This document shows positions 15,624-45,905 of a stretch of DNA of 64,000 nt, piece by piece. The DNA lies in NCBI GenBank assembly GCA_003290165.1, contig QNQO01000682.1:1-64000 (forward strand), in the 5' to 3' direction. The notes under the pieces were generated by a model. That model did not search any database. It had not been told where the DNA came from and worked only from the letters and a program-made list of their open reading frames with translations. The first letter of the stretch is position 1. Each line of letters starts with the position of its first letter. The position numbers were made by a program, and so were the translations under genes. This DNA is from Berberis thunbergii. Lineage: Eukaryota; Streptophyta; Magnoliopsida; Ranunculales; Berberidaceae.

Positions 15624-15629
15624 AGTTTT

Positions 15630-15646
15630 TGGCACCATTGCCGGGG
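15630..15646 (+). other. Athila primer-binding site (tRNA-Asp type)
   Basis: TGGCACCATTGCCGGGG lies 6 bp after the LTR. The Athila consensus is TGGCGCCGTTGCCGGGG, so two C-to-T/G-to-A type changes are present, as expected from methylated CpG decay. Confidence 0.85.
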
Positions 15647-20930: not shown

Positions 20931-21099
20931 AAAGAACTATTACCCATAACAAAAACTTTCTCTGATGAACAATTAATGATTATCGCTCATGTCAAATCAC
21001 AACCACCTTTGGCATGCTACATTGTGAACTTTCTTGCTATAAAGAAAATTCCAAAACATTGGTCTAAGCAAGATAAGTTTAAGTTTCTATTCATGGTAA

Positions 21100-22240
21100 A
21101 ATATTTTTCTTGGGATGAACCCTATCTCTTCAAATATTGTCCAGATCAAATCATTCGTAGATGCATCCCTGAGTTGGACCAGAGATATCTTGGCATTTTA
21201 CCATGATCATGCATGCGGAGGCCATTTTAGTGTGAAGAAGACTGCTGCAAAAGTTTTGCAATGCGATTTCTATTGAACCGCCCTTTTTGAAATGTCCATG
21301 TGTACTGTCAAGCTTGTACAAAATGTCAATAATTAGGGCGCATATCTCATAGACACATGATGCATTTGACTCCAATCCTGATTGTGGAACTCTTTGATGT
21401 GTAGGGTACTGATTTCATAGGTCCATTCCCAACTTCATATGGTTTCATCTACATTTTGGTTGTGGTAGACTATGTCTCAAAATGGATTGAAGCCATAGCT
21501 TGTAAGATCAATGACCCCAGGGTAGTTGTCAACTTCTTAAAGAAGTACATCCTTATTCGTTTTGTCACACCTCATGCAATCATCAATGATAGAAGTTCCC
21601 ACTTTTGCAATAGATTGTTTGAGAACTTAATGAAAAGGTATGGTGTTACCCACAAGGTTGTTGTACCATGCCATCCGCAAACGAGTAGTCAGGTAGAAGT
21701 TTTCAATCGGCAAATCAAACAAATCCTTGAAAAAACTGTCAGACCAGATAGAAAGGATTGGAGTTTGAGATTGTCAGAGTCTTTCTGGGCTTACCACACT
21801 ACATTCAAAAGCCCCATAGGAATGTTGCCCTATCATTTAATATTTGGCAAAACCTTGTCATTTACCCATTGAGCTCGAGCACAGAGCTTTTTGGGCAATT
21901 TAAACGTCTTAACTTTGACCTTGATTAGCTGGTGAACATAGAAAGTGGCAACTAAATGAGCTTGATGAGCTCATAAATGATGCATACAATCTATCCAAGA
22001 AGTATAAGAAGAAAATAAAAATAAAAATCCATGATGGTCAAATCATGCGAAAAGAGTTTGACCCAGGTCATAAAGTACTTCTGTAAAATTCTCGACTTCA
22101 CATATTTCCTGGGAAGTTAAAGACCCGTTGGTCAGGACCTTTTAGTGTCAAAACTGTTACCCATAGGGTTCCATCACAGTTGAAAACCCAAAAGAAGTAG
22201 TAACTTCCAAGTTAATGGACAATGTCTGAGGGCCTTTTTA
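21100..22240 (+). pseudogene. Athila integrase remnant
   Basis: The N-terminal zinc region HDHACGGHFSVKKTAAKVLQ (21206-21265) is followed by the core: VVVDYVSKWIEAIACKIND, FVTPHAIINDRSSHFCNRLF and PQTSSQVEVFNRQIKQILEK (21456-21740). The last holds the third catalytic acidic residue. A C-terminal part with PGKLKTRWSGPF (22110-22145) ends it. Frameshifted in the zinc region and after 21870. Confidence 0.85.
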
Positions 22241-24248: not shown

Positions 24249-24262
24249 GGGGGGGGGGGGGG
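24249..24262 (+). other. Athila polypurine tract, pure poly-G
   Basis: A run of about 14 G preceded by GTAGGTTT, directly before the 3' LTR. The position fits the plus-strand primer tract, though an uninterrupted G run is unusual and may hide sequencing or assembly length error. Confidence 0.75.
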
Positions 24263-25688
24263 ATTTTATATCCTTATAAATTATACATTTTAAGCCCCCA
24301 GTTTTATATTTGTTATGCTCTATTATCTAATAAAAAACTCTTATTACGTGTATTTTGTGTATAATGCAAGAATTCAAATATTAATCATCAAATATGCACA
24401 GAATGACACAATAAGGCTAAGTTCAACAACAAAGCTCATTGGAAGATAACACGTGCATTACCAAAGATTATCAAGCCTAACGTCTATGAAGTCAAGTATA
24501 CAAAGCACCATCATTTACATATCTCGATAAAATGAAGTTGAAGATTTGGACATCCACATGGCAACTTCATCATACTCAAAAGAATTATCTACACACTCTA
24601 CCATCCATTCTCCAACATATTCCTTATTATTATTTTTTTAATCCTCATTTTATTCCACCATATTCTTTTATCTTTCCCTTATTTTACTCCACCTTCCATT
24701 CTCCAACATATTCCCTTACATTTTTCTTATTTTATTCTTATTTTATTTCTATTTTATTCCACCACCCATTCCATATCTCATAATTCTTCACCTATTAACA
24801 CCTCGTGCTTGGAGTATACTGAGGAGATCTGGGAAAGGAGAGAAAATTGAGAGCTAGATATTGAAAGCTTTGAAGTTTACCTTGTAGGTTTGAATTTCAT
24901 TATCTTTATATCTATCACCATGAGAAACCTAAGGTTTACCATGAGTGGCTAAACACCCTTTTAGGGTGTGAGTGAGCCCCATGGGAGGATGACCTCAATT
25001 AGGTATTCTCAAAGTATTTCTTCCATGTAAATTAGACCAATATTGTGATTAGCATAATCTATGTTTTTGGATGTCAATGTTTAATGAATTCGATTGAAAT
25101 TTTGTTTTTCATAATCATGGATACATTTCTTGTTCTTGCTTTCATCTTTCTAAAAGTCATAGACTACAGATGTCTTTACTAGTATGAGTCTAACAAGCCC
25201 ACCCTTTAATGTTTTAAGTGTGATCATAGTATAAGGTTATACATGATTTGTTAGATATTAGGTGTTTCATTTAAGTTTGAATTCCTTATATGCTTTTAGA
25301 TCATGCTTATAATACTTAGATATGATTATCCAATTGGTTTGATTACATAAGCTTCATTGTACAATTTTCCATTCTTAGGTGATGTGAGAACCTATTTAAG
25401 GATGAGTTATGATTGGAAGAATATAATCTTGAGACTAGCCTAAGAAAGCCAACAACCCATGGTGGTGATCTCTAAAGCCCTACGTATTTCCATGTTTTAT
25501 TGTATTTATTTAGTTTTTATTTAGCTTTTAGTTCAAACATCTCATCAACCACTTATTTTCTAACTAGGTTAAGTTTAAGATAAATTTAAATATTAGTTTT
25601 CCTAATTTTATAGCTCTCCTTATGAGATTTTGCCGTTATCTAACTCAATTGATAATTGTGCGCTTGCAGTATGATTTGAGATCGATCA
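24263..25688 (+). repeat. 3' LTR of Athila element
   Basis: About 1426 bp from the poly-G tract to GAGATCGATCA. It is the partner of 14243-15623, with scattered substitutions and small indels. Confidence 0.9.
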
Positions 25689-26514
25689 ATAATATAACTT
25701 GATTTAATGCATAAGACAACTTACCATAAAGATAAAGGTCCCCATCTTGTTTCACTGGCATTACTCCAAAGGGTTGCAATTAATCATTTTAGTTGAATAG
25801 ATATCCTAGAGTAGCTAAACAAAACATTGTGAACTTCTAAAAACCTATAATTTGAGAAATGCAACACTTATGTGCTCCCATTTGAGCATATCAAGAGGTA
25901 CAACTTCAATCTATTTTTTCCCTCCTTTAAAAAAAAGCCCATTCCCACTAGAACTGCTAAAACGGCTACATGTTGAATCAAGAAAAATGCTAATAGCTAA
26001 GATGGTTTCCCATAACATAACCCAAAATTGACAATAAAACATTTCTCATATTTATAGTGAAGTAATAATGAAATCGTGATGCCAGTGAACACTGAACCTT
26101 GTGTATTCCAATCAAGACCTCTCTTTTCTCCAATCTCCACTCAAACATTCAACAAAATCTCAAAACAAAGATAGAGAAAGACATCAACAGTGATAGAGCT
26201 CGAGCGAGGCAAGAGCTACAGAAAGAACGAAAGAGTGAAAAGGAGGAAAAGAGAATCACAGAGCAAGGGAGAGAGGAAATCGCAGAGGAAGAGAGGAGAA
26301 TGGTAGCGTCATTTTTTTTAAGGTTTTAGGTTAGAGAGAGCGATGTCAAATTTTTGGGCGAAATAATGAGCACTTTTGCAATTTTAATCTCCCGCTTAAT
26401 TTTTAAAAGCATTTTCAGATTATAATATCATTAAAACTTGGTTTTTCATAACACAAGTATAAAAATGCTATTATCAAATGATGATTTTTGACGCAGTGCT
26501 CTGACAATGTAAAT
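25689..26514. other. Spacer without a recognised gene
   Basis: AT-rich apart from a GA-rich strip at 26180-26330. A possible minus-strand exon (GVMPVKQDGDLYLYG before a GTAAGT donor, about 25724-25774) is too short to assign. Confidence 0.45.
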
Positions 26515-27754: not shown

Positions 27755-28590
27755 ATGGCGGGGCAGAATCAACTTTCTGATGATCTAGTTACCGAATGTT
27801 ATGAGTTCTTCAAGGAGAGGTTAATTTTAAAGGTAGGTTTGGTAGATGTTCGTGAGAGATATCAAATTCCTGATGATATAGATCTCTTCACTTTGGGACC
27901 TGGTCAGACTCCGCTGTCTTCTCCGAGCGATCTCATTTGCTTGCATAAGGGTATATTTCAATCAAGCCTACATTTTCCTGTTATTGAAGATATTTGGCGT
28001 TTCTTAGCACATTTTGGCATCCCTCCAGCCCAGTTGATACCAAATGAGTACAAGGTTCTGATTGCCATGCTGATTAGAGTGAAGGATGTTGAACTTCGAT
28101 TGACTCTGAGGGCTATCCAACTATTGACCTCTCCTCGGTTGAACGACCATGCGGTCTGTTCATTACAGTCACCGATTTATCTGGGTGCTCTACATAATGA
28201 ATTCAAGTCTTGACAAAAGTATTATTTTATGGCTTCTGCGGATTCGAAGTTTTTTGAATTGGACGGTCATCTAATTAATTGGAAATTCAAACAACTCAGT
28301 GAGTATAAGACCTTTCTTGCTTTGAATTTCATTGACTGCATATTGAACTGTTATTTGTGTTTTTTCTAAAAAAAAAAATCGACAACACCCCTTTCTTCAG
28401 AAGAGATATAAGCATTGGATCAATTCTATGATTTGCCATTCATGGTGACTGAAGATGTTGTGAAGCCTAACAACATCAAGCGTAGCGGATTATGGAATTA
28501 CTTGTATGAGGCTCCTAATATTTTTAGATCTTGAAATCAAAGCCTGATGGAGCTCCTTCGAAGAAGAGGAAGCTTCCAAATGTGAAGATT
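27755..28590 (+). pseudogene. Antisense extra ORF of element B, part 1 (N-terminal domain)
   Basis: MAGQNQLSDDLVTECYEFF starts it. HFGIPPAQLIPNEYKVLIAM and RLTLRAIQLLTSPRLNDHAV follow (152 aa open), then, after a stop at 28211, SADSKFFELDGHLINWKF. A GT/AG-like gap near 28305-28400 suggests an intron before PSKKRKLPNVKI. The layout resembles the plant 'putative gypsy type transposon' (Transposase_28-like) N-terminal domain; the function is unknown. The ATG is preceded by a TATA box and leader. Interrupted at 28590 by the CACTA element. Confidence 0.7.
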
Positions 28591-28605
28591 CACTACAAGA
28601 AAAAT

Positions 28606-28860
28606 GTTGATTAATAGCGTTTCAAAAATGCTATGGTAGGATACCATAGCGGTTTAGTGAACGCTATGATAGCCGGCGCTATAATAGACCCAAGGGCTAT
28701 TATAGCGTTTTTAAAACGCTATGATAAGTTTGGATTTTATAGCGTTTTAAAAATGCTATGATATAATATACTATAGCGTTTTAAAAATGCTATGGTAGAC
28801 TACCATAGCGTTTTAAAAACGCTATGGTAGAGTATACATAGCAATTTTTTTTTGCTATCA
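28606..28860. repeat. Left subterminal repeats of the outer CACTA
   Basis: About seven copies of a palindrome near TAGCGTTTTAAAAACGCTA, spaced about 30-45 bp, some with ATGGTA or ATGATA tails. Repeats of this kind bind the TNPA-type protein in En/Spm; that role is inferred here. Two half-copies occur near the right end (45803-45865). Confidence 0.85.
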
Positions 28861-28989
28861 AATGACTTTTTATTACATCTTATAAGTTTTATTTCTAGAA
28901 AATAAAAAATTTAATGTGCCAAACTTAAAAATTTTCCATAAATGAAGGCAAAGTAATATAATTAATGAGATAATGTATTACAGGATGAA

Positions 28990-30396
28990 CAATATCAGGA
29001 TGTACATCCTTTTATAAGAGAACCATCATGTTCTAACATAGTAGCAAGTGATTTCTAAACTGCAAGTGCACGGCTGAATCTGCAAGTGAATCTGATGCAG
29101 CTGCTTGAACATTTTTACCATCATACTGCTTTGAAGATTCTACTGCCCTAACCCACCATTAGAATGTTGGACCTGACTTTCTTCATTTTCAAATGACTTT
29201 ATACCTACATCTGAATACAATGTGGATCCCTGAATTGTGTTTCCAATGACTGCTGTGGACGAACCATTGCATGTATCTACCTCGTCTGGTCGGTTCACTC
29301 AAACCAGTTGAACTTGCAGTTGGTGGCCTGCCATTTGAAACGCGCAACCCCTACCAATCAAAGTTAAAAACGTTCAGTTGAGAGCCCCATACGACAAATA
29401 AAAAGAAAATCAACAACAACGTATAACATACCATGAGGCTGCAGCTGGAAGAGCAGCAGATCTACCAGAGCTACCATTAGGAAGAGAACCTTTAGGATGG
29501 CTACCGGGATTCTGTAGGAAATAATAACCGAGTCATGACATGAAATAAACTGATTGCAAAACATCAAGTCAACAAGCAAATATTGAGTATCAAAGAAACA
29601 GGGGTTCATGTTGTTCCATCAGCTGCACATTGAAATTCAATGTAAAAATAGAATGAAGGTCATACATTTGTGGTTAATTTAGCAATAGGTTTCGCAGAAG
29701 GAGCAGTGTTGATGACGCCAAAATCATCCATAGGAGGAGGCAATGTATTCCCTGAACGCCATTGCAAATTATTTGTTGCACCAGTTATTTGTTGAACCCT
29801 GTTCCTAGAACGAAAATAAGAGATTATGATTCACATCATCATTTGATGAAACCAATGTAAAGAAAATCGAGGTAGTAGAAGTAACAGAAGTGCAAAATGA
29901 AATGGTCTCAGATACAAATACAACGACAGAGTAAGCTGAAGGAAATTAACACAAAGTTTGTGTATGGATTGTTTTATACCTTGAATATGCTGAAATTATC
30001 TCATCTTTAGTAAAACTATCTTCTTGGGTGCCAATTTCATGCAAATATAAACAATCTGGATTGCTGTAGGTCTGGACCAACAGAGATACATTTGAGTTAG
30101 CAAAACAATTATCGCACAACTGTTGACATGAAACTCAAAAAATCAAACAACCAAAATACATATCAAACATGAAAGCATACCATATTTCTCAACCAAGCAT
30201 GGCATTACTTTGTGGTCCCAAAGCATGCTCTGGAAATGCAATTTAATCAGTAACCAACTGGGACGCTACACTGTTATTCAGGAAATACAGTGATAAAGAA
30301 ACCATATGCTTACCTCAAAGGTTTACCTTCTAAAATATTGCCGTGCACTAGTTGAATGCTTCAAACTGCTCCTCTTCTTTTGAGTAAGTAATATAT
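28990..30396 (-). pseudogene. Captured NOT4-like (CCR4-NOT E3 ligase) gene fragment
   Basis: Five exon-like blocks with GT-AG borders: 30314-30396 (RRM, frameshifted, VHGNILEGKPLR); 30181-30229 (ACFGTTK-stop-CHAWLRNM); 29980-30071 (NPDCLYLHEIGTQEDSFTKD); 29666-29804 (NRVQQITGATNNLQ then LPPPMDDFG); 29432-29521 (NPGSHPKGSLPNGSSGRSA). Degraded C-terminal sequence follows to about 28990. The order and CCCH motif match plant NOT4 homologues, RING/RRM/zinc-finger E3 subunits of the CCR4-NOT complex. The RING domain is absent. A stop replaces the Tyr after GTTK, so it is not functional. Confidence 0.85.
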
Positions 30397-31237
30397 CTGC
30401 AAATAAAAGGGTGAGGAAACAGGCAACAAGAACATCTGTGTATAATTGAAATTCCTCACTCTTAAAGTAAAGCAATTAAAATCACGCAGTCCATTTCTAT
30501 TACCAAACTCTAGATCAAAAGGCAAACACTTTAGCATGATTAAATCACCATTCAATCGAAGAAGATACAACAGTTAATTGTGAATGCCCCCAAATAATCT
30601 CATATTCCTATATAGAAAAATATCCATGCAATCCTAAAGAGAAAAGCTTAAAATTCAGTAGAGTAACAGAAGCCAGGTTCAAAAGGAAGGAAAGAAACAA
30701 GATAATAAAGTACTTGGGTGGCTTTATAATGTCCAAATGCATCGTATTTCTGAGTTGATTGTCTATGGAAGTAAACCTACTTATAGGCACTTTTAGCTTC
30801 TAATGATAAATTTGTAAGAGATACAAATTTAGGAAGAATCTCCTATGTTTTTCATGTCTATTGTTTCAGTACAAGAATTCATAAATGGGAGTGTCAAAAT
30901 CCATGACTAAATTTTCATTTAAGGAGTCGACAACTGGAATGCTCTCAAATCTCATGCAAACCAGACGCTCTTAAAGCAATATTTCATGCCAATCTGAATA
31001 TGATTCAAGATCTGTGCAAATAGGCACGAGTTCGTTCATGCACAGTAGTTAGTTGATGTTAGTGAATTAACTTAGTTACCTGTTAACAAAATCTAAATGT
31101 AACAAAGTAGTTATCCATTTGATCAGGGACTTAACAATCTAAGTGTTACGAACAACTATAGGTCCATCAAAGATGCTAATTTTACAGCTAAAACAGAACA
31201 CAGAAAAAAATTATACATTAACTACAAAACAACTTGC

Positions 31238-31367
31238 CTGAATCACAATTGAGTGGGCTATCAGGTTCTGGATGAGCCATTAAAGCAATTATAGTCCTAC
31301 AAACTGACTGGAGAGTCCAAGTAGGGCTCCATGCAGTCTTCAAGATATCTAAGCAAATCTCTCCTGT
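31238..31367 (-). pseudogene. Captured PEX4/UBC21 ubiquitin-conjugating enzyme exon
   Basis: One open 43-codon exon reads TGEICLDILKTAWSPTWTLQ then SVCRTIIALMAHPEPDSPLN. This is the catalytic segment of peroxin-4, the E2 that monoubiquitinates the peroxisomal import receptor, with the active-site Cys in EICLDI. The acceptor is TGCAG; the donor reads CAG|GCAAGT, a GC donor. The remaining exons were not found. The exon sits 127 bp downstream of an ABCG exon on the same strand. Confidence 0.9.
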
Positions 31368-31494
31368 CTGCATATGAAAAAGGAAATAAGAACAACAGAA
31401 AGTGGAAAACACAAAAAAGTTGATCAAAAAATTAGAAAGTTTGAGGAATTCTCAGTCTCACATACTTTACTGTAATAAGATGTAAGATCATTTT

Positions 31495-31771
31495 TTACAT
31501 AGCCACGTCCACAACATACAGTAGAGTAGACTTTCCCATGCCAGGAGGACCAAGAAGGAGTGTAAGCCTGTCCAGAATAAACACAAAACAGAACAACAGT
31601 TAGTATTTGGACTGTTAGCAAACTAACAATTACTTAAAAACAGAACAGAATACCTAAATCGGAAGTATCTGAACTCGTTTACCTTCCTGGTTTGATGATA
31701 CCGCTTATATCATCAAGGATTACCACTGGTTTTTTCTTGCTTTTAAGGATCTTAAGAGAACTCAGTAAGCT
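31495..31771 (-). pseudogene. Captured PDR-type ABCG transporter fragment (two exons)
   Basis: The exon at 31683-31771 reads SLLSSLKILKSKKKPVVILD and DISGIIKPGR. The next, 31495-31567, reads LTLLLGPPGMGKSTLL, then diverges and stops. This is the start of the first nucleotide-binding domain of full-size ABCG (PDR) transporters, with the Walker A motif GPPGMGKST intact. A GTAAAC donor and AG acceptor separate the exons. About 50 residues of a roughly 1400-residue family remain. Confidence 0.85.
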
Positions 31772-33140
31772 CTGCAGAATCAAAATCAGACACCAATTCA
31801 GTGAAAAATGTTTAGTTAAATGAACTCAGTAAGCTCTAACATCAACATCTAGTTTGGTCTTCTTCTTCTTGCACAACCTTACCCTTACCCTTATATTTCT
31901 TTGCAGTTTGAGCCTCAAATTGGTGGCCTAACTCGTTCTGCTACCAAATGGTTATCTTTTACTCCGTAGACCTGCACGTAACCACAAGTTACATAAAGTC
32001 ATGACAATTTTCAATTGGATATCACTAAAAAAACTTACAGGTTATCAAACTCAGTTATAAAGCTTTCAAACCACCTAACCACATTATGCAAATAGATAGA
32101 CTTCAGAAACCATATATCAATAGAAGCATATATTAACACTTTACATTTGAAGTTGACAAATTATGAGATGGTTGAGTTTGAAATACTAACAAATATAACA
32201 AAACAAAAACAATGCCAAGGGATACCTAATATCTCAAAAAGTAATGAAATGCATACAATTGAACTCTAATAATAAGCTTACCCTGTTAAGAAATTCAAAA
32301 CCCACGTCATTCTTCATAACTTCCAAACTTGGAACTATATATTCTTTGGAAGAACTCCTAACAAGCATACAATCAAGAAATGACCAACTTCATGCTGCAC
32401 AAACATATCTTGAAATTTTACTTCCTGGAAAATTAAAAAGAGAAAAACTTTCATTGAAATTCTGCCCCATCCTGATCCAAAAATTCTAATGGGGTAAAAT
32501 TCTGTCCCTTCCTAATCCAAAACTTCTGATGGGGGCAAAATTAAATTCAGGGCTTAGCTTTTCCAATCGGCTACAATATCCATGCTTCTTTAAGCACTTC
32601 CTTTCCTAGATACCCAAAGCAAAGTAAAATCTTTTCCTAGATACCCAAGGCAAAGTAGAATGAACGAAAGGCAAAATCTTGAAGAGAAAACGGAGCTTGG
32701 TAACACTGGTTAAAGAACAATCATTAGAGTTTTTCCATTTTATTGAAATCATTAAACAACTAGGAAAAACATTATGTATCAACTAACATGACCGGTAAAC
32801 GACATGAATTATTTTGGCATCCACCATTTAGAATATGATTATTTGTGATGCTTAGTGCTCCCCACACTTGCAGTATTGCTAAAGGTCTTACCAGGGAAAG
32901 CATTTTGCCTGTTGCATGAGCCTCTTCCCATTTCCACCAAGTATGGACCTGTCCAAAGTACAAGAACATTATAATCAAACGAAAAACATTAGAAACAAAG
33001 TAATTGAAAAAAAACACTTTAATAATAGTCAAACAACACGCAAAAATTACAATGACAGTTTTGCAAAAATTACCACCCATAAATTCATAAGAAAACGAAA
33101 AACTAAGATGGTAGAGTGAAAAATAGGTGCATGGGATTAC

Positions 33141-33177
33141 CAATCATGACGGTTCTGATGTTTCCAGCAAGCGAATC
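33141..33177 (-). pseudogene. Exon-like fragment, possibly kinesin motor
   Basis: A 37-bp block with AG acceptor and GTAATC donor reads DSLAGNIRTVMI, which resembles the DSLGGNxxTVMI motif of kinesin motor domains. It is too short to be sure, and the nearest blocks (33582-33648, 32888-32949) do not look like kinesin. Confidence 0.4.
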
Positions 33178-33581
33178 CTGCCAAAAGTTTACAATGAAAC
33201 AGAGAAATTACAAGGAGAAGGAAAACATCCTTAGTAATTGAAACACTTCAACTAGTTAATATGAAAAAAATACACTGCTCAATGAAAAAACAGAAAAAAC
33301 AATGTTTCTCCTCAGTGAGCTACTGATTGTCCCTAAACAATTTCTAGCATTCCTACCTTTTTCTAAAATTATTGAGAATAGGAAAGCAACAAGAGCTAGT
33401 TCATACCTTGACATAATTATTGATATAGTGGAAGAAGGTTCAACTTTAACATTAGCTGGAGTACAAAAACTATTTCTTATCAAAGTATCAAAAAATTATA
33501 TAAAGAACATATTTATAATATAAAAGTTCCAAGTATTAAAATGACTTATTAAATACACATTAGAAAATAATGTTAACAAAC

Positions 33582-33648
33582 CTCATTTGCCAGGATCATA
33601 AGTTCATCAACATCTTTAACCAGGAACCATCCACTATTGCAAGCATTC
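33582..33648 (-). pseudogene. Unrecognised captured exon
   Basis: A 67-bp block with TAG acceptor and GAG|GTTTG donor reads NACNSGWFLVKDVDELMILA. It is protein-like and on the same strand as the other captured exons. The source gene is not recognised. Confidence 0.4.
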
Positions 33649-34506
33649 TACCAGTGCAAACAAAAGAACAACATCATGTCATATTACTTTAATGCAATGG
33701 TCTTGGAAATGGGTTAAAAGAACACAAGGAAGCCCCCAACAAAATCATGAAGGTGTTAAGAAAAAGGCTCTAGCTTAATCTACATGAAAAATAAAACACA
33801 AAAAGTCAGGCTGACATGGAGTGAGTTAAGGCATTTCAATTTCCTTTTATTTCAAGGAAATGGAGGAATAAGCCTCGCGAGCATGCATTTGAAACATTCG
33901 GATCACCTACGTTGTAATCAAATGATAGCAACGAGAAATCTAACATCTTAGTTGCTTGATAGCTCATTATGATTATGAACAAATACAATAAAAACCTAGC
34001 AACTGCTTATGTGAAACGAAAAGTACAAGTAAACATCTGATTAACTGACTTCAAGGATTGGCAGATAGAATCAAACGTTTGATATAATAGCATCACAAAG
34101 GCATTGCAACCTAATTTCTCAATAGCCTCGACAAACCTATAAATTGGCACCTTAAGCACTAGTAGTTGAAATTTGCAAAAGAGAGTATGCAGTTTCTTGT
34201 AACTCTAAACTTATTTGAAAGAGATTTACATGCTTTTGCAATACTTAGTAAAGATTCAAAGAGTAAAACACATAAAAAAACTTGCAATGGCAATTCAATA
34301 TACCATCAAACTTCTACCACCAGCTCATTTGCAACAAGGAATAAACACACCTGTTCAATAATTTAGAGGGCTGACCTAACATGAAGTCAAAATCATTTTT
34401 CCCAATCATGCTGGGAACCTAGGCACATAACACATTCAAGTATAATAATATGAACCATTGAATAAACACAAAAGCAATAAGTGATTGTTTTTTTATCGAT
34501 TCTTAC

Positions 34507-34566
34507 CTCCTCAATACCAAAATCAACCACCTTCTCCTCAAGAGAGCTGACATTATCAACAATGAA
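34507..34566 (-). pseudogene. Unrecognised captured exon
   Basis: Exactly 20 codons between an AAG acceptor and a GAG|GTAAGA donor, reading FIVDNVSSLEEKVVDFGIEE. The frame is open and the composition acidic, coiled-coil-like. Source not recognised. Confidence 0.4.
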
Positions 34567-34776
34567 CTTGTTGGGGAGAATAATGCTAGATTTAAAACTT
34601 AGTAAAATCACGAGCAAATTAAAGATGCCCAAATCTAAAACTCAGCAACATCAATGAAGTTGAAGATACACATATCTAAATTATTAACCAAACAACATAA
34701 ATGCTCGACCTTAGATCGAGAAATGTTGATCAAATGGAAGATCTAGCTTACCCATCATGAGAGTAGACGATGAATT

Positions 34777-34902
34777 TTAGTTGTTCTTGAAGGAATTGAA
34801 AGCAGTGGAAGTGTCGATGCAATCATTGTTGTTATTGCTGAGCTCAGGCGCTGCCACCACCCACAAGAGTGCCCAAAACACCAGGAAGTAGAAGATTTCC
34901 AT
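34777..34902 (-). pseudogene. Captured 5' end with signal peptide and UTR-like leader
   Basis: MEIFYFLVFWALLWVVAAPE begins a 41-residue frame that looks like a signal peptide followed by an Asn-rich stretch, ending at a stop after FNSFKNN. The 200 bp before the ATG (34903-35100, minus) are GA-rich like a plant 5' UTR. It probably marks the captured 5' end of a secreted-protein gene. The source is not recognised. Confidence 0.45.
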
Positions 34903-35203
34903 CTTTTCTTCTTCTTTAGATCGATTGATCCAAATAACAGAGTGGCTATGTTAAATGGGTTTGTGCTCTCTCTGTTTCTAGATTTCCCTCGCTCTCTCCA
35001 TAGATCTGGATCTAGATCTCTCGATCTCTTTTTCTTCCTGGATCTCCCACGATCTCTCGTTCTCCTTAGATTTCCCTCTCTTTAAACTAAACGTGCTAAT
35101 TGGTTAGCTCTATTACACATAAGCAATACACAAATGAATGAACTATTTTTTCAATAAATAATTACCTCTCCTTGGCGAATGACAACACTACACCAAAAAC
35201 CAC

Positions 35204-35850
35204 CATTAGCAACGGTTCTAGACCATGGGCGTAAGCCATTGCCACGGCTAAGAGCCGTGGACTACAGGGGCGTCGCAAAATCATTTGTAACGTCTATAAA
35301 CCGTTGCTAAACATTGTAGCAACGGTTTTATGGTTGGATGGGGGGCGTTATTTTCAGAAATTAGCAACGGTTATAAACCGTTGCAATAAAAATAGCAACG
35401 GTTCTTAGCCGTGGCAAAATTAGCTATGGTTTTAAGCCGTTACAAAGTGTAGATATTAGCAACGGTTATAAACCGTAGCTAACAAGATAGCAACGGTTTA
35501 TAGCCGTTGCAAAATTTGCTACGGTTTTAAGCCGTGACAAAGTTCATATATTAGCAACGGTTTTAAACCGTGTCTAATATTTGCAACGGTTTTTAGCCGT
35601 GGCTAACCGTGGCAACGGTTACAAACCGTGGCTAAATAGTGTGAATTAAACCGTGGCAAATGGGCTAGCAACGGTTTTGGGCCGTGGCTAACCATGGCCA
35701 CGGTTTGTAGCCGTAGCAAATGAGAAATAATGCCCACGGTTTGTAGCCGTGGCAAGATGGAACCACGGTTTTAAGCCGTTGGCAATTAAAACAAAATTCA
35801 AAAAAAAAAAATCTATTTTGTTGCAACGGTTTTAAACCGTCGCAAGTTAA
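35204..35850. repeat. Left subterminal repeats of the inner CACTA
   Basis: About twenty copies of AGCAACGGTTTTAAACCGTTG and variants, including GCCGTGGC half-sites, alternate in both orientations. The unit is palindromic, as in the outer element, but its sequence is unrelated (CAACGG/CCGTTG instead of AGCG/CGCT). Confidence 0.9.
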
Positions 35851-36229
35851 TATAATCGAAAAAAAAATTTATATTTTATTTTTGCTGTTGCAGCAAAATC
35901 ACAGCCGTGGCACCTGCAAAATCAGTCCTTACACATAGTCCACACAAATGAGACAAAAGAATCATAAATTGGATGAACTAATTTAGCCTGAATTAAACAA
36001 ATTAATTATCAATAATAATTCAATATATTACAAGCAATTGGTCATCGTGATTGCTCCAAACCTCTCCAACATGATCACTTAATTAAATACATAATTATTC
36101 CTAATACAACTAGGTGATGTCCCTTTCAAAACACCTCCATGTTAGGCCAATAAATGGATAAGAACTAAAACACAATGCAGATCTGCAGAAGCTGAAGGAG
36201 TGATATACACAACAAAAGTATGTAGAAAC

Positions 36230-36912
36230 CTTTGCCAATTGCTGAGTCTGGATGATGTGTATGCACATCTGAAACACAGGTTCTGCAAACCGAACAAACC
36301 CAGAACCTAATGCCTGAAACAGATAGAACAAGAGTATAAAAACTCTATTGTTTCATTCGATCTAGAAGAGACTTCCAAAAGTTAAAAAAAAATAAGTCGT
36401 GTAGAACTATAAGTTAAAAGTATTAGTTCGACATGAGCCTGACAGCTGTTTAATCAAATAGAAAATTTTTAAATGACTCAGGCAAGGGAAAAGATACCTG
36501 TGCTATAGATGTAAAACACTCGAGCAAGGGAAAAAGATCTCTGTCGGCATTCGAAAGCTGCTGCCACTTTGCAATCACTGGAGGCATTAAAATCTCAAGA
36601 TATCTTGGCTGTAATTCATCATCATAGAGAACAAGTTAACTTACTATTTTTGTTCAATACTGGCAGCCAACAAGATGAAACACATTACATGATACCTGAA
36701 GGTTTTGTTAGCATCATTTATATACAATCCGAAGGTTTCGTTTCTAAAGGAGTTTAGACAAAAAGGGATTAGCAAGTGTCAGATATTTGACATAATAGCC
36801 AAAATGTAAAGTGAAAGAGCACTTATATAAAACAAACCTGATATTGCCCAAAAGCACACAAGAGATGCTGCAAAATGACTTCCAACCGTGGAGCCAACTC
36901 CTCAGCAGCTTC
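36230..36912 (-). pseudogene. Captured transportin-1 (importin beta-like) fragment
   Basis: Three open exons with GT-AG borders: 36838-36912 ([20 protein letters not shown]), 36498-36608 ([20 protein letters not shown] then [14 protein letters not shown]) and 36230-36313 ([20 protein letters not shown] then IQTQQLAK). These are HEAT repeats in the middle of transportin, the import receptor for PY-NLS cargoes. The exon normally between the first two (about 20-25 residues) is missing. The reading frame of each exon is intact. Confidence 0.9.
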
Positions 36913-37379
36913 CTGGCATTTATAAATTTAAAATTGAGAACTTGTCGACAAAAAGTTTGAAAACCATTTTGAAAACTAAGAACTTGTCGACAAAACATGC
37001 AATTAGAAACCATTTTGAAAATAACTACGCAAGGGATCATCATCCTGTTGTCAGATGAAGATTAAAATCCAATCCAACCAATAATATCTAGCATGAAACA
37101 TATAAAAATTAAATCAGCAAAAAAAATCTTTTCCTGGTTGGACATCAAAATCCAGGGCATGTCCTTTTTTTTTTGTTTGAAAGCCAAGGCAAAAACTAAA
37201 AACAATGAAAATACAAAACTTAAAGCAATCAACTTAAATCAACTCACAGTCAATCTCTCAACCGTAGAACACGCAGCACACGCGCGTTTCTGCGACAAAT
37301 CAAGTTACACCGGACTGCCCAGATCAACCGGCATACACACGCTCCAACCGCATGTCGCCACATCTCAGCATGTCAACGC

Positions 37380-37560
37380 TGCAACAGACAGCAGCAATGC
37401 GTCCCAGCAGCAGCAAACCCAGCAGCAACAACAACAGCAAAGCAGGGCAGCAACAGCAGTAACGCGCCAAAGCGTAGCAGCAGCAGCAGCATCAACGCCG
37501 CGCAGCAACAGCAGCATCAACAACAGCAACAGAGCGCAGCAACAGCTAGTACGCCAGTCC
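37380..37560. repeat. CAG/CAA-rich low-complexity stretch
   Basis: Irregular CAG, CAA and AGCAGC runs. They create a Gln/Ala/Ser-rich plus-strand ORF (37093-37572) without other protein features. Confidence 0.8.
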
Positions 37561-38039
37561 GCCCCCGCGTGAAACAGCAGCAGAAAAAAATTACAGATGC
37601 ACTCTGTTTTGCGACAGAGTGCTCTGCCTACACAGCAGCAGCAGCATCCCCTGCATGCAGCAGTTTTGCTCGCAGCGTATCGCCATATCCCGGACTGCCA
37701 AAGCTGTCAGATCCCCAATCCCTCGCAGCACAAAGCCAATACAGGTATTTACTCGTCCCCGTGGCGAATGTAAGCCAGAAAATCTGTGTGTGCTTCTTGT
37801 TTTACTTCATTACATTCAACTGTGTGCATCCAAAGATGAAAAAACTCAAACTACATAATGAAACTTATAACATGACTTGAAGAAAACATGGGCGAGGATA
37901 ATCAAGATAAGATGGGAAGAAAAAATCTGTACAAACTGATCATATATAGCTTCCTTAACCAGGAGCCCAGGTGTTCTTTCTCGTTTTATGCTCTTTCTGA
38001 TAAATCATTACCCTTTTCGATAGAAGATAAAATAAAAAG

Positions 38040-38240
38040 GAGGAATTCTAAATGTCGAGGAAACAGGTTAGGAAATGGGCGAGGGAAGCGATGTGGCGGG
38101 GTGGAGACCGTCCACTCCGCTCGGGATGCGTGCCATCATTTTTGGTGCGCACATCCCGAGCGGAGTGGACGGTCTCCACCCCGCCACGTCGCTTTCCTCG
38201 CCCATTTCCTCATCTGTTTCCTCGACATTTAGAACTGCTC
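38040..38240. mobile_element. Palindromic Mutator-type MITE, copy 2
   Basis: A 201-bp near-perfect hairpin. Arms of about 88 bp start TTCTAAATGTCGAGGAAAC and run through GGTGGAGACCGTCCACTCC to a loop of about 14 bp. The ends GAGGAATTCTAAATG and the complement of GAGCAGTTCTAAATG match at 13 of 15. A perfect 9-bp duplication AATAAAAAG flanks it (38031-38039 and 38241-38249). It shares its outer arm with the copy at 13849 but has a different centre. It inserted after, or travelled with, the captured DNA of the CACTA. Confidence 0.85.
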
Positions 38241-39552
38241 AATAAAAAGATAGCCAAAACCATGGTAGTGACTTAAAATAGGGAGAAAAAAGTCATAAAA
38301 AATTTTAGACATCTTCAATATGTAAGAGTTCGAAAAGAAGATAATAGCACTTGGACCAATGCACGCCTACATAACATCGCCCAAAATGCCAACTTATTTA
38401 GGGTGTGAGAATAATTCAGGAAATGAACAGAACAGGTGACAGTGAAGAAAAGTACAAAATCATCTGCAGAAGTCTTTCAATCACTAGCAATCAATAACTT
38501 GCTAATAGTGTAAAAACATCCGAAGTTGTAAACACTAGTGGTATTTTGTTAATGTGAAACGAACAAAATAAAGGGCAATTTGTGCGCGGTAACTTAAAAG
38601 TTGTCGAATTGAATTTTTCGATTCACAAAACCTACAAATATTTACATTGGTCTCAACAGATGGAAGTATGTTCATACCTGTCACCTGCTCCTCATATAGA
38701 GCCAAGCAAAGCTATGCACCTTCACAAGTACTTGCCAAAATTACCTGCAATTGTCAACCAAGCAAAGTTAGCTTTTATAGCTTGACAAGAAGCTCAAACC
38801 AATCATGCATTCGAAGAAAAACAAATGCTGGAAAAAATTCAATTCATTCCAACATCTTAAGTTGAAATTTATGTAAAATGGACAGCTGCAATCGGCTACA
38901 TTCTTCATTTTCGTACAATTGTTTGATAGGCAAAAAAGGTTAAAATGAGCTGATTTTTTGTAAAGATGATCTCCACCTTAAAAAATCGTAATTCTATTCA
39001 ATGTGGGAATGTGTATCAAAAAGTGTGACAAACTAACATGCCCTATTTAAAAAAGTTCATGACAGGCAAGTTTGAATATTAAGTTCATCTTTATCATCAG
39101 TAGTTTATATATACATCACAATAAACAAATCTTTATGCGTAGTCTATGCATTCGTAATATCACCCTGCACTTGAATAACACCTTCAATGGATAAATAAAA
39201 TTGCAAGTTGCAACTAGCAACCAGCCTAATGATTCATCAGTCAAACATCAAATTACTCCTTGCAACTTGCAAATAAAATTGCAAGTTCAAAATGCAAATT
39301 GCAATAACAAACTCTAAATGCCAATGACCATCCTACCAACTTTCAAAGATCCAACGCATCACGCCAGCCTGGCACCCGATTTTTCCCGTATACAAGCAAC
39401 CTGACCACAAACTAGCACGTAACAGAGCAGCAATAGCACACAACAAAAATTTAGCACTCTGTCCAGCACAATGGACTGCAGAATTCGCTCTCCATACAGC
39501 AACCTGGGCCACAAATCAGCATGGGTATCAAAAGGAAAAAACAAATTTCTAC

Positions 39553-39825
39553 CTTCAATTGACCAATGATATACTGACGTTTGAGTGACCAAACCCAACA
39601 TCTTTGGGGTAATCCACTTCCAAAAGAAAACCTGTATGGATGACAACAGATAAACAAAAATTAGCCTCATTCCAACAACAACAAAAAAACTAAGATATTT
39701 ATTATGCTGGAAAAGTAAACAGGATGCAATTATAACCTGCTCAGGCATCTGGTGAGACTTCATTTTTGCCTTTGCTTTAATGTTGAATATTTGTAAGTGA
39801 TCTTGGGTGGTTCCCTGAAGTTGAG
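39553..39825 (-). pseudogene. Captured clathrin heavy chain fragment
   Basis: The exon at 39737-39825 reads [20 protein letters not shown] then MKSHQMPEQ. The exon at 39553-39631 reads [20 protein letters not shown] then YHWSIE. Both have GT-AG borders. Together they are a contiguous part of the N-terminal beta-propeller of clathrin heavy chain, which binds cargo adaptors. Sequence beyond is not clathrin. Confidence 0.9.
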
Positions 39826-40399
39826 CTTCAAACAAAAACAAAAATTCAACACTTGGAACATATAATAATCTGTCTTTTGCAGTAATGTGAAGAAATTCAA
39901 ACGTCACACCTACTGCTAAATATTCTACACTGGTCACTGTGTCAGTAGTGCCTAGTGGATGGCAAATAGTTTTACATCTTCTTAAGTCATAATTGCAATT
40001 TGCAAGTGTCAGTTATCATGTCAATCTACTATTTAATAAACAAACTAACAACCCGGTTTACATGAATCAGATACGTTTATTTGTTTCTCTTCCAGCTTTC
40101 CAATTTCGCTCATGGTACCATCAACTAACAAGGTGTAAATTAAGATTCGCGTAAAAGGATTAAGCACATGATAAAGTCATAGAGTTTAAACTACAACAAA
40201 ATACGAGAGACAATGTAAATGTAACTAAAATTAAATCATCTACTAGTAATTCCATTACAGGTGTGCAATCATTACAAGTCATGAATACATAGAAAATGTA
40301 GGTGGTGAAATGCTTAAAGTTTACGGTAAAGAAACATACTTATACAGAGCGATGAAATATTTTGTTATGGTAATAAAGTAAAATAGACGAAGTTCAGCT

Positions 40400-40690
40400 T
40401 TGGACTAATGCTTAGATATTGTATAAACTCATTACTTATCACAATTTAGTAGTAATCGTTTTTTATACAATTGTGATTCAGTTTATACTAAATTGTAGTA
40501 ATGCAAGTCTTACTAAAAATTGATAAACTCTTACTAAAAATTGATAAACTCTTACTCGTTACATAATGCGAGTCTTACTAAGACTCGATTTTTAAATCAC
40601 AATTGTATAAACTCTTTACTTAGATATTGTATAAACTCATTACTAAGACTCGCACACTCCATTACTACTAAGAGTCGCACAATGGAGTGT
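40400..40690. repeat. Shuffled direct and inverted short repeats
   Basis: TTAGATATTGTATAAACTC occurs at about 40411 and 40621. TAAAAATTGATAAACTCTTACT is tandemly doubled in part near 40512-40555. Forms of CGAGTCTTACTAAGACTCG appear in both orientations. It looks like a small foldback or tandemly rearranged insertion in an intron-like region. No terminal duplication was found. Confidence 0.6.
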
Positions 40691-41034
40691 GGGTATAAAA
40701 AAAAATTACAATTTAGACTGATAAAAATCTTAAGCACATCAAGCTAAATTAGATAATAACGTGAATCTTAACATGATAACAAACCTTAAGAGTTAACTGA
40801 CTGTCATTATAATCAAATCAAACTAATCACATTAACTCGTATTAATAATCCTACTATTAAAAATCAAGCATATTTTTGAAAAAGATAAATGATGCTAATC
40901 GGTTCAAGAAATATATACCTTGTTCATGGGAATAGTATGCTTCAATCAAACATATAAGGTTCACTAAATATAAACTTATTTGACAATAAATTACATATGG
41001 TTTGATTGAAAAGAAACGAGTAGGTCAGGTTCAC

Positions 41035-42020
41035 CTATGGTAAGCATGGATTGTTCTGCCTTTAAACGCAGCAATAGTGTGTTCAACACATCCAGATTCA
41101 TTTAAGGTGTCAGCGTGAAGGTTAACCTGTAGAAAGATATCATTAAGGCTTGATAGTATAGAGCATGCAGGAAGAGTAAAGTGGCTTTCATGTACCTGAA
41201 TGTCATATTCTCTTGCAACAGTCAAACAATTCTCTATTGTAGCAGGAGTAGATCCCCAGTCCTCATGCAACTTCAAGCCCATAGCTCCTGCTTTGATTAT
41301 TTCATGTAACCCGTCTGGCTTGGAAGTGCTCCCTTATGTGCAAGGCAGCAACCAAATAATGAAACATATAATGGGCTACACAACAACAACTCATAATGTA
41401 ATGAGTAGACATGTCCCCGTATTATTAGGTTTTCTAATCAACATGTTTGACACCTCATATCTGTGTCGGACATTGACTGTCCCACACACACCCTTAAAGA
41501 ACATGAACGAAAAGAGGTAGATAGTTACAGAAAGTCACCATTTCAATCTTTAGATCTGGGCATGCATGTTTTAACCAAGTTACTCATAAAAATAAAACAA
41601 TTGAAAAATAAAATTGAAAAAAATAAAAGTATACCTTCCCAGTAAAGCCAAAATTCAATGGCATGTCATCAGTGGACTGCAGCATAAATTTCATATGTGC
41701 TGGTGCAGGTGTACATGTTGTTGCGCGTGATCCATGCGACGGTCCAGTCCCACCTCCCACCAAAGTAGTGATGCCTTCAGGGATTATTAAAAGTTACTTT
41801 CAGAGACAACAACGTCATCATGAAGAGTCAATAACTGTTAATTTTTTTGCCATGCTATAGTTGATTTTCTAGACCTATCTAGTGTTCTAGCATTCCTATC
41901 TATACATTTTGCCATTGCTAAGATTCTGTTAAGCTTGACTGCTCAAAGGAAATAAATAAATAAATATATAAATAGAAAGCTAACCGCTTGATATAGCTTC
42001 AAATGGGAATGCATGCAGAG
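41035..42020 (-). pseudogene. Captured urease fragment (active-site region)
   Basis: Exons with GT-AG borders: about 41985-42020 (FEAISSG), 41635-41774 ([20 protein letters not shown] then [14 protein letters not shown]), 41196-41332 ([20 protein letters not shown] then [20 protein letters not shown]) and 41035-41126 ([20 protein letters not shown]). This is the metal-centre part of plant urease. It includes the Lys of GLKLHEDWG that is carbamylated in known ureases and the nickel-ligand His of [10 protein letters not shown]. The four exons are open and contiguous in the protein. N- and C-terminal parts are absent. Confidence 0.9.
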
Positions 42021-42631
42021 GGTAAAATACCAGTGATGAAATTTTGAGCTCTGCATCTCATGGTGAGGCAAAGATCACTGAGGCAAAATTGATTGACAAT
42101 GGATTTGAACATCCCCATAAATCTTATGCATATAAACCTAGACAAAGGGCATCCGTGCCAAAACATAATTATGATATACATTGTTGTTAACCTATCAGCA
42201 CAGAAATGACAAGCCTCACCTTACGATGTGCATTATGAAAGCAAAAAGATCGGAAGAGGCATTACAAATAAGAGCAGCATTTTAAGAACAATTCCATTGG
42301 AGAACAATAAAAGCAGCCAAGCAATTTGTTATGATACAGAATGGCTACCATAATTAAGGATTTACAGAGTAGTTATATCATGTTTATTTACAGACATGAT
42401 TTAAAATGGTATAGACAGTGTTCATATAAAATACACAACGATTATGGTTTTGAACATGTGATGATATTCACAGAGCGAAGTTAAGTTGGTCCCTGTAGAT
42501 TGCAGAGATCCAAATGGGGAGAAAAATAAATGGATCAATGTATGGAACTAAATAATTTAATTTATTTATTTAGCAGGAGGAACATAGATAAAATACAGAG
42601 TAAATTTTTTTTACTACTACTGCTCTATATC

Positions 42632-45170
42632 TTACACTTTGGCATGCAGGTACTGATCCAAAGTGATAGGTTTAGGACCACCAAACATGTTGATCAAGAA
42701 AAACTTTTCAATGCCGAGTTTGAAAAACTGGAAATTGTGACTCTTGGGCCAATCTGCCAAACATTCAAAGCAAAACATATAAAGTGATCAATAATGAGCA
42801 ACCAAGAGCAACAAAAAGATGAAAACAAATTTTAATTGAAACCATGCATGAGACGTCATCAAGATTTACCCTTCATCTCAGAGTGTTTTGAGAACAAGGC
42901 AGTTTCTGCAAATTTAGCTTCCTTCGAATTTCCATCAACCACCGTCAACTGAAATACCAAAGATGCAAACAATCAGCACAGAAACTCACACTAAGCAGTT
43001 CAGAATGAACAGATCTTTATATAGTACCAACTTATAAATTCCATTCTATTAAACCACGTTCAGTAGTTTCAAAAGATAATAGGTATATGCAGAAATTTCC
43101 ATTACCTGCAATGCCTAACATTCTTCATCTTGTATAACAGATAAAAAATGGTTCTCTCTCGACTTCTACCTTCTGAAGATGACAACCTTATTTTCACTAT
43201 TTTATATTTATTGTACACTAATCATCTAAGATTTATCTGAACAAGCATATGGATTTTTATTTTCTATTCAGGTATAGCAATTCATTAAAACTGAAAAATG
43301 CGGGGTATGTGCATCAAAGAAAAATTGTTTTGGAAAAACTGATTATCAAATAGCAGGAACTCAGGTAAGCAATGATGAAAGTTGATAGTACCATCTCAAA
43401 ATGAGGTCACCCTCAGTTGAAGTGGTAAAGTCATAGCGTGGTTGAACCAACTTCTTACAGGGTTTAAATATTGCTAGAAAACATCGATTCTTTAATCTTG
43501 GAGGCCATATTTTTCATTTATTTAAAGTCACAGTATATAAACTTTCTAGTGTACAACTACTGATTGTTGCTTCTAATATGATCCCTCAGTGTTTAATCAT
43601 AGTTCTATGCAATAATAATAACATTCTATCCCAATACTTTGTGATTTATGGTCAGGCGAATCTCGAATTTAGGCTTATAGGATAACGAACAGGCTAGTGC
43701 GATAACTCGAGACAAGCACAGAAACTCGGTCTGTTGTGAAGGTAAGAACTATACCTAATACAGAATTACATTCTTAATTAATGATATGCATACAGGTATG
43801 AAAGTTATAAACATAAGCATTTATCATTGTTTGAAATAGCCAATGTCAAATCTTTAGACTAAGATATATTCATTGGACTAATGAAAAAAGTGCTAGAAAT
43901 GAAGGTCAAGTCATCCATAGTACATCATGTATTAATGAAAATATCGACACAAAAAAGATGAGTCTTCAAAATGTTTAATTATTCACCTTTCCATTAAGTG
44001 TAAGCTTTGCACAAGTTGGGTTCTCAGGATCTGTCTTGCCACAAGTTCCAAGAGGGAACTCACTGAGTGTAAATGAATCCCTTGAATCATTCAATGCATT
44101 ACTTGTAGTAGGGTCAAGAGTGGTCAAGTAGAAGTATGGGATGCCCCAGCCTTTACCAGGTTTCCCATCACTAAATGAAACTACATTTCTGAATACATCA
44201 GAGAATAATAATGTCAATCAAAAATTAGTTTGGTGTAAAAAAATAACTTAGCCAAACTGTATGAAAATGTAAATAATTTACCCAAAGGGAGCTCCTCCCA
44301 AGTCACTGGAGATGATACTGCAGGAACAAAGTATCAATGTTAACATCATGGTCCAAATTCATATGAGGACTTAACCACAAATACAAATTTTGCTTCCCAG
44401 AACAAGGATAGTGGCTAATGCCACATTAATTTATCAAAAGAAACATATACGAGTCGTTCTTTTCATATTACATAGAGATCAAAAAATGCAGAAAGTATAG
44501 AATGTGTTCAAAGATCTCGTAAATGAGCTTTTCAATGCTTTCATGCTTTGTATCGTATTTGTAATCTTAAAAATAGTTGCTTGTTTGTTTGTTTGTTCAG
44601 TTTTCAGTTAAAATCTATACCTCAACAATTCTTTTATTCAGCCAGTCACAGACATGATGCCATGTATTTAGACAGAATTGTAAAATGGGTGTTTTCATCA
44701 TCATTGAGACAAACACAATCCAAGTGTTAGTCATAAAAATTGACAAGACTTCTTTTATCTCCACCAAATCAACTAACCCATTTTACAAAGAGAACCAAAG
44801 GTGCCTCCAACAAACCACATTTAACAATTATTAACCAAATCCAGCTACAACCAATTATATAAACCTAAGAATAACCATAACCCGTTTCATATAACCAAAG
44901 ATAAAACACCGCTACAATCCACGAACACTTAAATTATACTCATACAAAATTCTAATTGGAAAAAATGGAAATAGAGAGAGAGATAGAGATAGAGATTCAC
45001 CTTAAGACCCCCCATGTGTTCTCAGAGACCAACCATCTAGCAAACACAACAGCATCATTAGGATTTGGTTTTGTTTTCAATACAAGTTTTCTCCCCTGTA
45101 CTGCAATTGAAGCTTCAAGGACAACAAAAACGAAGAAAAAACATAGAGCAGAGACTATTTTGGACACCAT
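42632..45170 (-). CDS. CREG-like protein, complete five-exon gene inside the CACTA
   Basis: Exons 45001-45170, 44282-44317, 43987-44188, 42870-42948 and 42632-42753 sum to 609 bp, a 202-residue frame without stops. All introns are GT-AG and phases match. Residues 1-22 form a signal peptide. WLVSENTWGVLSIISSDLGG, VVSFSDGKPGKGWGIPYFYL, PLGTCGKTDPENPTCAKLTL and FFLINMFGGPKPITLDQYLH span the plant CREG family (pyridoxamine-5'-phosphate-oxidase-like split barrel), secreted or vacuolar proteins of unclear role. The length is close to full length. A CT-rich leader on the plus strand (45205-45290) looks like the native 5' UTR, so the promoter may have been captured too. Whether it is expressed is unknown. 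Confidence 0.85.
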
Positions 45171-45454
45171 TTTACTTTACTGGATGATATGACATGATGG
45201 AGCAACGGGTTTTGGTTGTTTGGGTTGCTCGAATTCTCCCTCTCTCTTTCATTCTCCTTCTCTTTCTCCTTCTCTCTTTCCCTCTCTTTGAAATTTTAGG
45301 GTTAGATGCAAAGGGTTGAAAAGGGGGAGATGGAGCGGGAACGCGCGGGAAGCAAATTTTTTTCCCAAAATTTCGCCCGCAAGAATTCGACCTAGATCTC
45401 CACACGTCCACGTGCAACACACGTGCCTTTTTGCAACAGTTTTAAGCCGTTGGG

Positions 45455-45638
45455 AATCTGTTGTTTTGACTCTGCAATCACAACATTCAGATCCTTAACT
45501 TGGAGCAAAACTTGTGGAGAAAACATCTCCTTTAACACTGTCGTTGTCTGTGGGAGAAAGGGCAGGTGCAGAATCGACCGCAAAGAGAGAAAGATGAAAA
45601 TCTTCAGATGCAGGAGGCTTAACCTTGAACTTCATTGA
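45455..45638 (-). pseudogene. Captured first exon of an unrecognised gene, split by the inner CACTA
   Basis: The frame starts MKFKVKPPASEDFHLSLFAV at 45638. A one-base shift near 45525 moves it to FSPQVLLQVKDLNVVIAESK. On the far side of the inner CACTA, 35166-35185 reads LSFAKER up to a GTAATT donor, which could be the rest of this exon. The protein is not recognised. Confidence 0.5.
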
Positions 45639-45905
45639 GAGAGATGGAGAGACTGAATTTGATTCAGAAGATCGATAGAGATGGAGAGAATGAAGCAGTA
45701 GCATTTTTTATTATTTGCTTACACAAACCAAAAATGAAACCGCGTCCGTGAATTTCAGTCCCGCCTTTCTTTTTTAAGTTCCCGCGCGCTCCTTTGGTTT
45801 GTAGCGTTTTCAGTTTTAATTGTCCATGAATTCAGTCAATCATAGCACTTTGGACAAAAACGCTATAAACATATGCTATAAATGAAGACTTTTTTTGTAG
45901 TGATT

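What the first reader, a model, noticed from the sequence alone, without database searches (positions are those of the whole stretch)
28591..45902. A 17.3-kb CACTA element carrying pieces of at least seven unrelated host genes, all on one strand
Seen: CACTA ends, an ATT duplication, and a host ORF that reads in frame across the empty site. Inside, NOT4-like, PEX4, ABCG, transportin, clathrin heavy chain, urease and CREG exons follow one another on the minus strand with introns kept. Known: gene capture by CACTA elements (Pack-CACTA) is reported in several plants. The number of donors and the uniform strand are unusual. Inference: uniform strand could reflect selection for read-through transcription or capture mechanics.
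Basis: partly seen in the sequence, partly recalled or inferred. Interest (0 to 1): 0.9.

Follow-up and report, generated by a model that had tools for sequence, protein, structure and literature searches.

The report
Two nested gene-carrying CACTA transposons
What looked like one plant jumping gene packed with pieces of seven host genes is really two such elements, one sitting inside the other, and the captured genes that could be recognised in them point the same way.

Summary
Window 28591-45902 is a CACTA insertion (CACTACAAG...TTGTAGTG, ATT on both sides). The seven named donors are there on the minus strand with introns (NOT4, PEX4, a PDR-type ABCG, transportin, clathrin heavy chain, urease, CREG), plus an eighth, a molybdate-anion-transporter exon. 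The reading as one element is wrong. A second CACTA, B (CACTACACC...GGTGTAGTG), starts at 35186: in the other allele it is complete (10,751 bp, CAA on both sides), and an A copy elsewhere shows the B-empty site. A (about 7.06 kb) carries NOT4, PEX4, PDR and the transporter; B carries transportin, clathrin, urease and a complete five-exon CREG gene. The window haplotype lacks about 490 bp at B's right end. Both families are multicopy, and A is a hybrid of two relatives joined at 31931/31932. CREG matches 40 of 40 scored places, 24 full length, and drifts as if neutral (24 N, 7 S, 3 stop). The uniform strand recurs in cargo that the window lacks: 12 of 12 recognised donors (two weakly) are co-oriented, as is a weak Transposase_24 match in a B relative. 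These are Pack-CACTA elements; the possible strand rule is the interesting part.

The parts
28591..45902 (.). Element A with element B inside it; 17,312 bp, flanked by ATT
   Evidence: ends and duplication; same site complete in allele C8742 (17,812 bp)
28591..35185 (.). Left part of element A
   Evidence: copies; B-empty site in C348/C7483
28703..28825 (.). Subterminal repeats of A (TAGCGTTTT family)
29146..30395 (-). NOT4 (CCR4-NOT subunit 4) piece, several exons, frame-shifted
31236..31379 (-). PEX4 exon
31498..31771 (-). PDR-type ABCG piece, two exons up to Walker A
31931..31932 (.). Hybrid junction between two A relatives
34780..34902 (-). Molybdate-anion-transporter (MFS_5) first exon with ATG
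35186..45451 (.). Element B, right terminus missing in this haplotype
   Evidence: left end; complete in allele; other loci
35207..35834 (.). Subterminal repeats of B (CAACGGTTT family)
36230..36925 (-). Transportin piece, three exons
39552..39829 (-). Clathrin heavy chain piece, two exons
41034..42057 (-). Urease piece; three exons matched, a fourth read by eye at 41984-42057
42632..45170 (-). Complete CREG gene: ATG, five exons, four GT-AG introns, stop; 202 codons
45450..45902 (.). Right end of element A
   Evidence: C348/C7483 join 35185 to 45450

Best explanation
Two gene-carrying CACTA (Pack-CACTA) elements of different families, nested. A is a hybrid of two A relatives joined at 31931/31932 and carries NOT4, PEX4, PDR and MFS_5 pieces. 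B, with transportin, clathrin, urease and a whole CREG gene, inserted into an A copy (CAA duplication). A sits in a repeated, probably transposon-like sequence (ATT duplication). The window haplotype lacks about 490 bp at B's right end. Shown: both sets of ends, both duplications, the B-empty site, copies of A and B elsewhere, the hybrid junction, and variation in CREG like that of a neutral passenger. Inferred: movement by transposases supplied in trans; cargo gained stepwise at DNA level, since introns are kept; and a uniform strand because the element is transcribed from its right end and antisense cargo, which would act on the donor genes, is lost by selection.
For: B complete with CAA on both sides in the allele and B-empty site in C348/C7483; B with all its cargo at another site (C331/C7399) and, with indels, at C7709; A copies sharing the left end and diverging at 29757, 30548, 30736 or 31932; junction; subterminal motifs confined to the element ends; CREG variants near the neutral expectation; NOT4 loci on other contigs; cargo of relatives on the same strand, and a Transposase_24 match co-oriented in B relative C7762.
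Against: The C348/C7483 copy has ACT and GCT as flanks, two of three bases agreeing. No transposase domain was found in A or B themselves. The only donor looked for with an answer was NOT4, and it could not be aligned to the cargo. The strand step rests on 12 donors, two of them weak, chosen after the pattern was seen; the Transposase_24 match is below its cut-off. The search with A's right end did not complete. The missing 490 bp could be an assembly error.
Confidence: 0.8

Rival explanations
1. One 17.3-kb element captured all donors itself.
For: Outer ends, subterminal motif and ATT duplication enclose everything.
Against: B has its own ends, its own CAA duplication, copies at other sites with the same cargo, and an A copy lacks it cleanly.
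Confidence: 0.02
2. The uniform strand is chance or a detection effect.
For: Few independent captures; window alone gives 0.016; detection only through conserved domains; the test was chosen after the fact.
Against: 12 of 12 recognised donors in the two families co-oriented, 0 families on the opposite strand of the stretches read; product of two-sided probabilities 0.001, about 0.004 without the two weak donors (my arithmetic).
Confidence: 0.3
3. The strand is set by the capture step itself (polar capture), not by later selection.
For: Cargo is one-sided in both families, in copies of differing content.
Against: The published hybrid model, known to me through passages of PMC13317346 and PMC8903248, has no step that fixes the strand of the DNA between two elements; no very young capture was examined.
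Confidence: 0.25
4. CREG is kept as a working gene and pays for the element's spread.
For: Complete gene with upstream sequence; 8 of 14 rows have an intact frame.
Against: 24 N, 7 S and 3 stop variants fit neutrality; 5 of 14 rows have a stop and one a 1-base deletion; C7709 has lost part of exon 1.
Confidence: 0.06

Closest known systems
Tgm-Express1, soybean CACTA (PMC1947982; passages seen)
   Same: CACTA with several unrelated host gene fragments (five in 5.7 kb), introns kept, fragments spliced as exons of one transcript, which implies one orientation (my inference)
   Different: One element in an intron of F3H, no nested element reported in the passages seen; no complete gene
Pack-CACTA and other Pack-TYPE elements (PMC8903248 passages and section 10; PMC13317346 passages)
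   Same: Elements with CACTA ends and host cargo; maize Pack-CACTA hold the most distinct loci; hybrids of neighbouring elements proposed
   Different: Here two families are nested and the cargo strand is uniform; strand was not discussed in what I saw
Tpn1 family, Ipomoea nil (PMC5105172; passages seen)
   Same: Large CACTA family with captured genic regions, 3-bp duplications, up to 40.6 kb
   Different: Different ends family as far as seen; no strand statement in the passages seen
Maize Helitrons (PMC3288121 and PMC6431247; passages seen)
   Same: Stepwise capture; up to nine fragments; nested elements give extra termini
   Different: Rolling-circle elements (PMC6431247 passages); a different class, without CACTA ends or target duplication (recalled)

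Membership tests
CACTA (En/Spm) superfamily | Terminal inverted repeats beginning CACTA | tested here: met
   A; B: both ends in the allele. In the window copy B's right end is missing
CACTA (En/Spm) superfamily | 3-bp target duplication | tested here: met
   A ATT; B CAA, TTT and TTA at other sites; one A relative has ACT/GCT
CACTA (En/Spm) superfamily | Subterminal repeats in direct and inverted orientation | tested here: met
   TAGCGTTTT at both ends of A; CAACGGTTT at B left; B right repeats in the allele
CACTA (En/Spm) superfamily, autonomous | Own transposase genes | tested here: not met
   No transposase domain in A or B by Pfam at 0.01; weak Transposase_24 in B relative C7762. A and B are therefore filed as non-autonomous
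Pack-CACTA | CACTA ends enclosing host gene fragments, no transposase | tested here: met
Pack-CACTA | Multicopy family with shared ends | tested here: met
Pack-CACTA | Donor genes identified in the same genome | tested here: inconclusive
   NOT4 loci with N-terminal exons at C10999/C1993 and C812/C9095, not aligned to the cargo; urease search unanswered
Pack-CACTA | Mobilised by a compatible transposase | not tested
   No mobility data

The most novel reading that the evidence does not exclude
CACTA elements in this plant keep captured genes only in the orientation of their own transposase gene: a family-wide strand rule produced by selection against antisense cargo (or by a polar capture step), so that many sense copies, among them a whole CREG gene, accumulate without silencing their donors.
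Probability: 0.35. Interest if true: 0.75.

Novelty: new member of a known kind. Interest (0 to 1): 0.5.

Why it matters
It shows, with an empty site and both duplications, how a very gene-rich CACTA can arise from nesting and hybridisation rather than from repeated capture by one element. It offers two multicopy families in one genome in which the strand of capture can be counted, and a case where a complete gene is multiplied to many places yet varies like a neutral passenger.

Tried and rejected
Rejected: a single element; a host gene at the insertion site; CREG under selection. A tentative M41-peptidase-like piece (about 32290-32440) and further possible exons (about 32880-34640) were seen by eye but got no support from Pfam, NCBIfam or the protein search and are not counted. 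NOT4 gave no PDB match. The closest CREG protein found was 76% identical; a CREG tree puts the plant beside Thalictrum and Ranunculus with support 0.83, which is weak. Paper searches listed no title or abstract reporting a strand rule for CACTA cargo; that speaks only of those listings. The first CREG coding count had an exon-offset error and was redone; only the flank lines are used. The script stopped with an error after the NOT4 rows for thresholds 0.90 and 0.95. Notes in the notebook say 25 full-length CREG places; the recount is 24. C7709 was left out of the CREG count because exon 1 was not recovered.
Full report
What is there. The stretch 28591-45902 begins CACTACAAGAAAAATG and ends TTTTTTTGTAGTG, with ATT on both sides. 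The motif TAGCGTTTT occurs 8 times in the 64-kb window, 6 at the left and 2 at the right end of this stretch. The window is part of contig C682 of an unnamed 2.24-Gb plant assembly of 11,732 contigs.

Donors. Reading the three minus-strand frames, Pfam and PDB searches find PEX4, transportin, urease, clathrin heavy chain and CREG. Short spliced queries confirm NOT4, a PDR-type ABC transporter and an eighth donor, the first exon of a molybdate-anion transporter (0.006 in Pfam, below cut-off). The best hit is a hypothetical Vicia faba protein that repeats a NOT4 stretch; the next are annotated CCR4-NOT subunits. The three plus-strand frames give 0 Pfam families at E 0.01. The window's NOT4 piece is frame-shifted and differs at 5 of 57 near-invariant positions, a number reached by 2 of 120 rows including itself. 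CREG differs at 2 of 78, reached by 18 of 121 rows. CREG is complete: start, stop, five exons, four GT-AG introns, 202 codons.

Two elements, not one. At 35186 lies a second CACTA end (CACTACACC) with other subterminal repeats; 8 of 8 CAACGGTTT in the window lie at 35298-35824. Contig C8742, 99.6% identical over 28491-45452 and taken as the other allele, contains this element B complete: 10,751 bp ending GGTGTAGTG, with CAA on both sides. C348 and C7483, which share flanks and so are taken as one site, carry an A copy that runs from 35185 to 45450 with a single CAA: the B-empty site. A without B is 7,058 bp in the allele. In the window B's right terminus is missing: the sequence passes from AAGCCGTTG in B to GGGAATCTG in A, about 490 bp less than the allele. 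I have not excluded an assembly error there; it does not affect the nesting.

B elsewhere. B's left 685 bp matches 40 of 40 scored places at 94-100%, of 7,742 first-look candidates (the window and alleles are among them). Of four places fetched, C331 and C7399 (same flanks, TTT duplication) carry all of B at 98%; C7709 (TTA) carries it with indels, and CREG exon 1 was not recovered there; C7762 (TTT, 11.61 kb) shares the left 2.4 kb with transportin and then has other cargo.

A elsewhere. Of 40 scored places for A's left 610 bp (4,449 first-look candidates), 20 span 1-610 or 3-610, the window and alleles included. Ten contigs were fetched. They share the left part; nine of the ten, all but the allele C8742, depart from the window at 29757, 30548, 30736 or 31932. 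The window's A is a hybrid: up to 31932 it follows C1518 and C4915 (95-96%), from 31931 it follows C348 and C7483 (96.5%), with next to no shared bases at the joint. In C137 and C5229 the NOT4 piece reaches residue 68 of the Stephania protein, against residue 163 in the window. This fits a published hybrid model for Pack-CACTA (Catoni 2019, not held; known from passages of PMC13317346 and PMC8903248).

Donor loci. A 150-aa N-terminal NOT4 query, outside what the window copy holds, finds four exon stretches in order at C10999/C1993 and at C812/C9095, with more diverged series at C120/C6057 and C105/C5932. The same search finds the later stretches alone in A copies such as C137 and C5229. I read the complete series as ordinary NOT4 loci, candidates for the donor. 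They could not be aligned to the cargo, and no other donor was located.

CREG. The 2.6-kb CREG stretch matches 40 of 40 scored places at 96-100% (388 first-look candidates), 24 of them over all 2,601 bases; the window and alleles are included, so loci are fewer, and the list is incomplete, since allele C8742 is not in it. Coding sequence was read from 14 rows: window, allele, C331, C7399 and 10 more of the 40 places. All 14 keep the ATG, the final stop and the splice dinucleotides; 8 frames are intact, 5 have one stop, the allele has a 1-base deletion. Among 12 rows (two second alleles dropped) there are 24 nonsynonymous, 7 synonymous and 3 stop variants, against 71, 25 and 4% expected without selection. 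C8294 and C541 are identical and may be alleles. The three right flanks examined (C725, C124, C16) end in GGTGTAGTG like B; C124 and C16 are followed by the same bases and may be one site.

Strand. In the window the eight donors are on the minus strand. Cargo that the window lacks was read on both strands: C137 gives Cu-oxidase_3 (6e-15) and Pex2_Pex12 (3e-5, just below cut-off), C1518 gives BCDHK (2e-5), C7762 gives Peptidase_M18 (2e-4, below cut-off) and Transposase_24 (4e-5, below cut-off), all on the same strand relative to the left end as the window's cargo. C348's unique kilobase gives nothing on either strand, and the opposite strand gives 0 families in the stretches read; the last 1.7 kb of C7762 was not read. 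That is 12 of 12 donors co-oriented, 7 in A and 5 in B, and with the transposase-like match. Two-sided coin probabilities multiply to 0.001, or about 0.004 without the two weak donors (my arithmetic). The numbers are small, the test was chosen after seeing the pattern, and detection is limited to conserved domains.

Interpretation. Ends, duplications, subterminal repeats and host cargo of Pack-CACTA were tested and met; an own transposase was looked for and not found in A or B. With the cargo split four and four, neither element is exceptional in donor number beside Tgm-Express1 with five (PMC1947982, passages) or multi-locus maize Pack-CACTA (PMC8903248, section 10). In soybean the fragments are spliced as exons of the host transcript, which implies one orientation there too; that is my inference. 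I think it most likely that sense cargo persists and antisense cargo is lost because the element is transcribed from its right end, but no RNA evidence was available.

Insertion site. Joining the flanks opens one 81-codon frame. The neighbouring frame 27755-28213 has only a weak match to Transposase_28 (E 0.07, below cut-off), and stretches near it recur at 49.6-50.3 kb at 70-77%. The target is thus more likely transposon-derived than a host gene, but this is not settled.

Noticed in passing
window 14242-25689, +: Two direct repeats of about 1.4 kb (87.7% alike) flank RT_RNaseH and integrase domains: looks like an LTR retrotransposon.
   Followed up: no
window 38040-38240: Near-perfect 200-bp foldback (88%) inside element B; a similar one (70%) lies in the stretch fetched from C6194.
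   Followed up: no
window 45498-45704, -: A 69-codon frame near A's right end, the same in the allele and with 4 changes in C348/C7483; no Pfam match; could be a first exon of the element.
   Followed up: partly
window 37400-37550: CAG/CAA-rich stretch inside element B.
   Followed up: no
protein P0121 (Vicia faba RYX36_032677): A 410-aa hypothetical protein that contains a NOT4 stretch twice in tandem; perhaps another captured or duplicated fragment.
   Followed up: no
window 55508-56208 and 60282-60797: Two tandem arrays (periods about 70/140 and 182 bp) outside the element.
   Followed up: no
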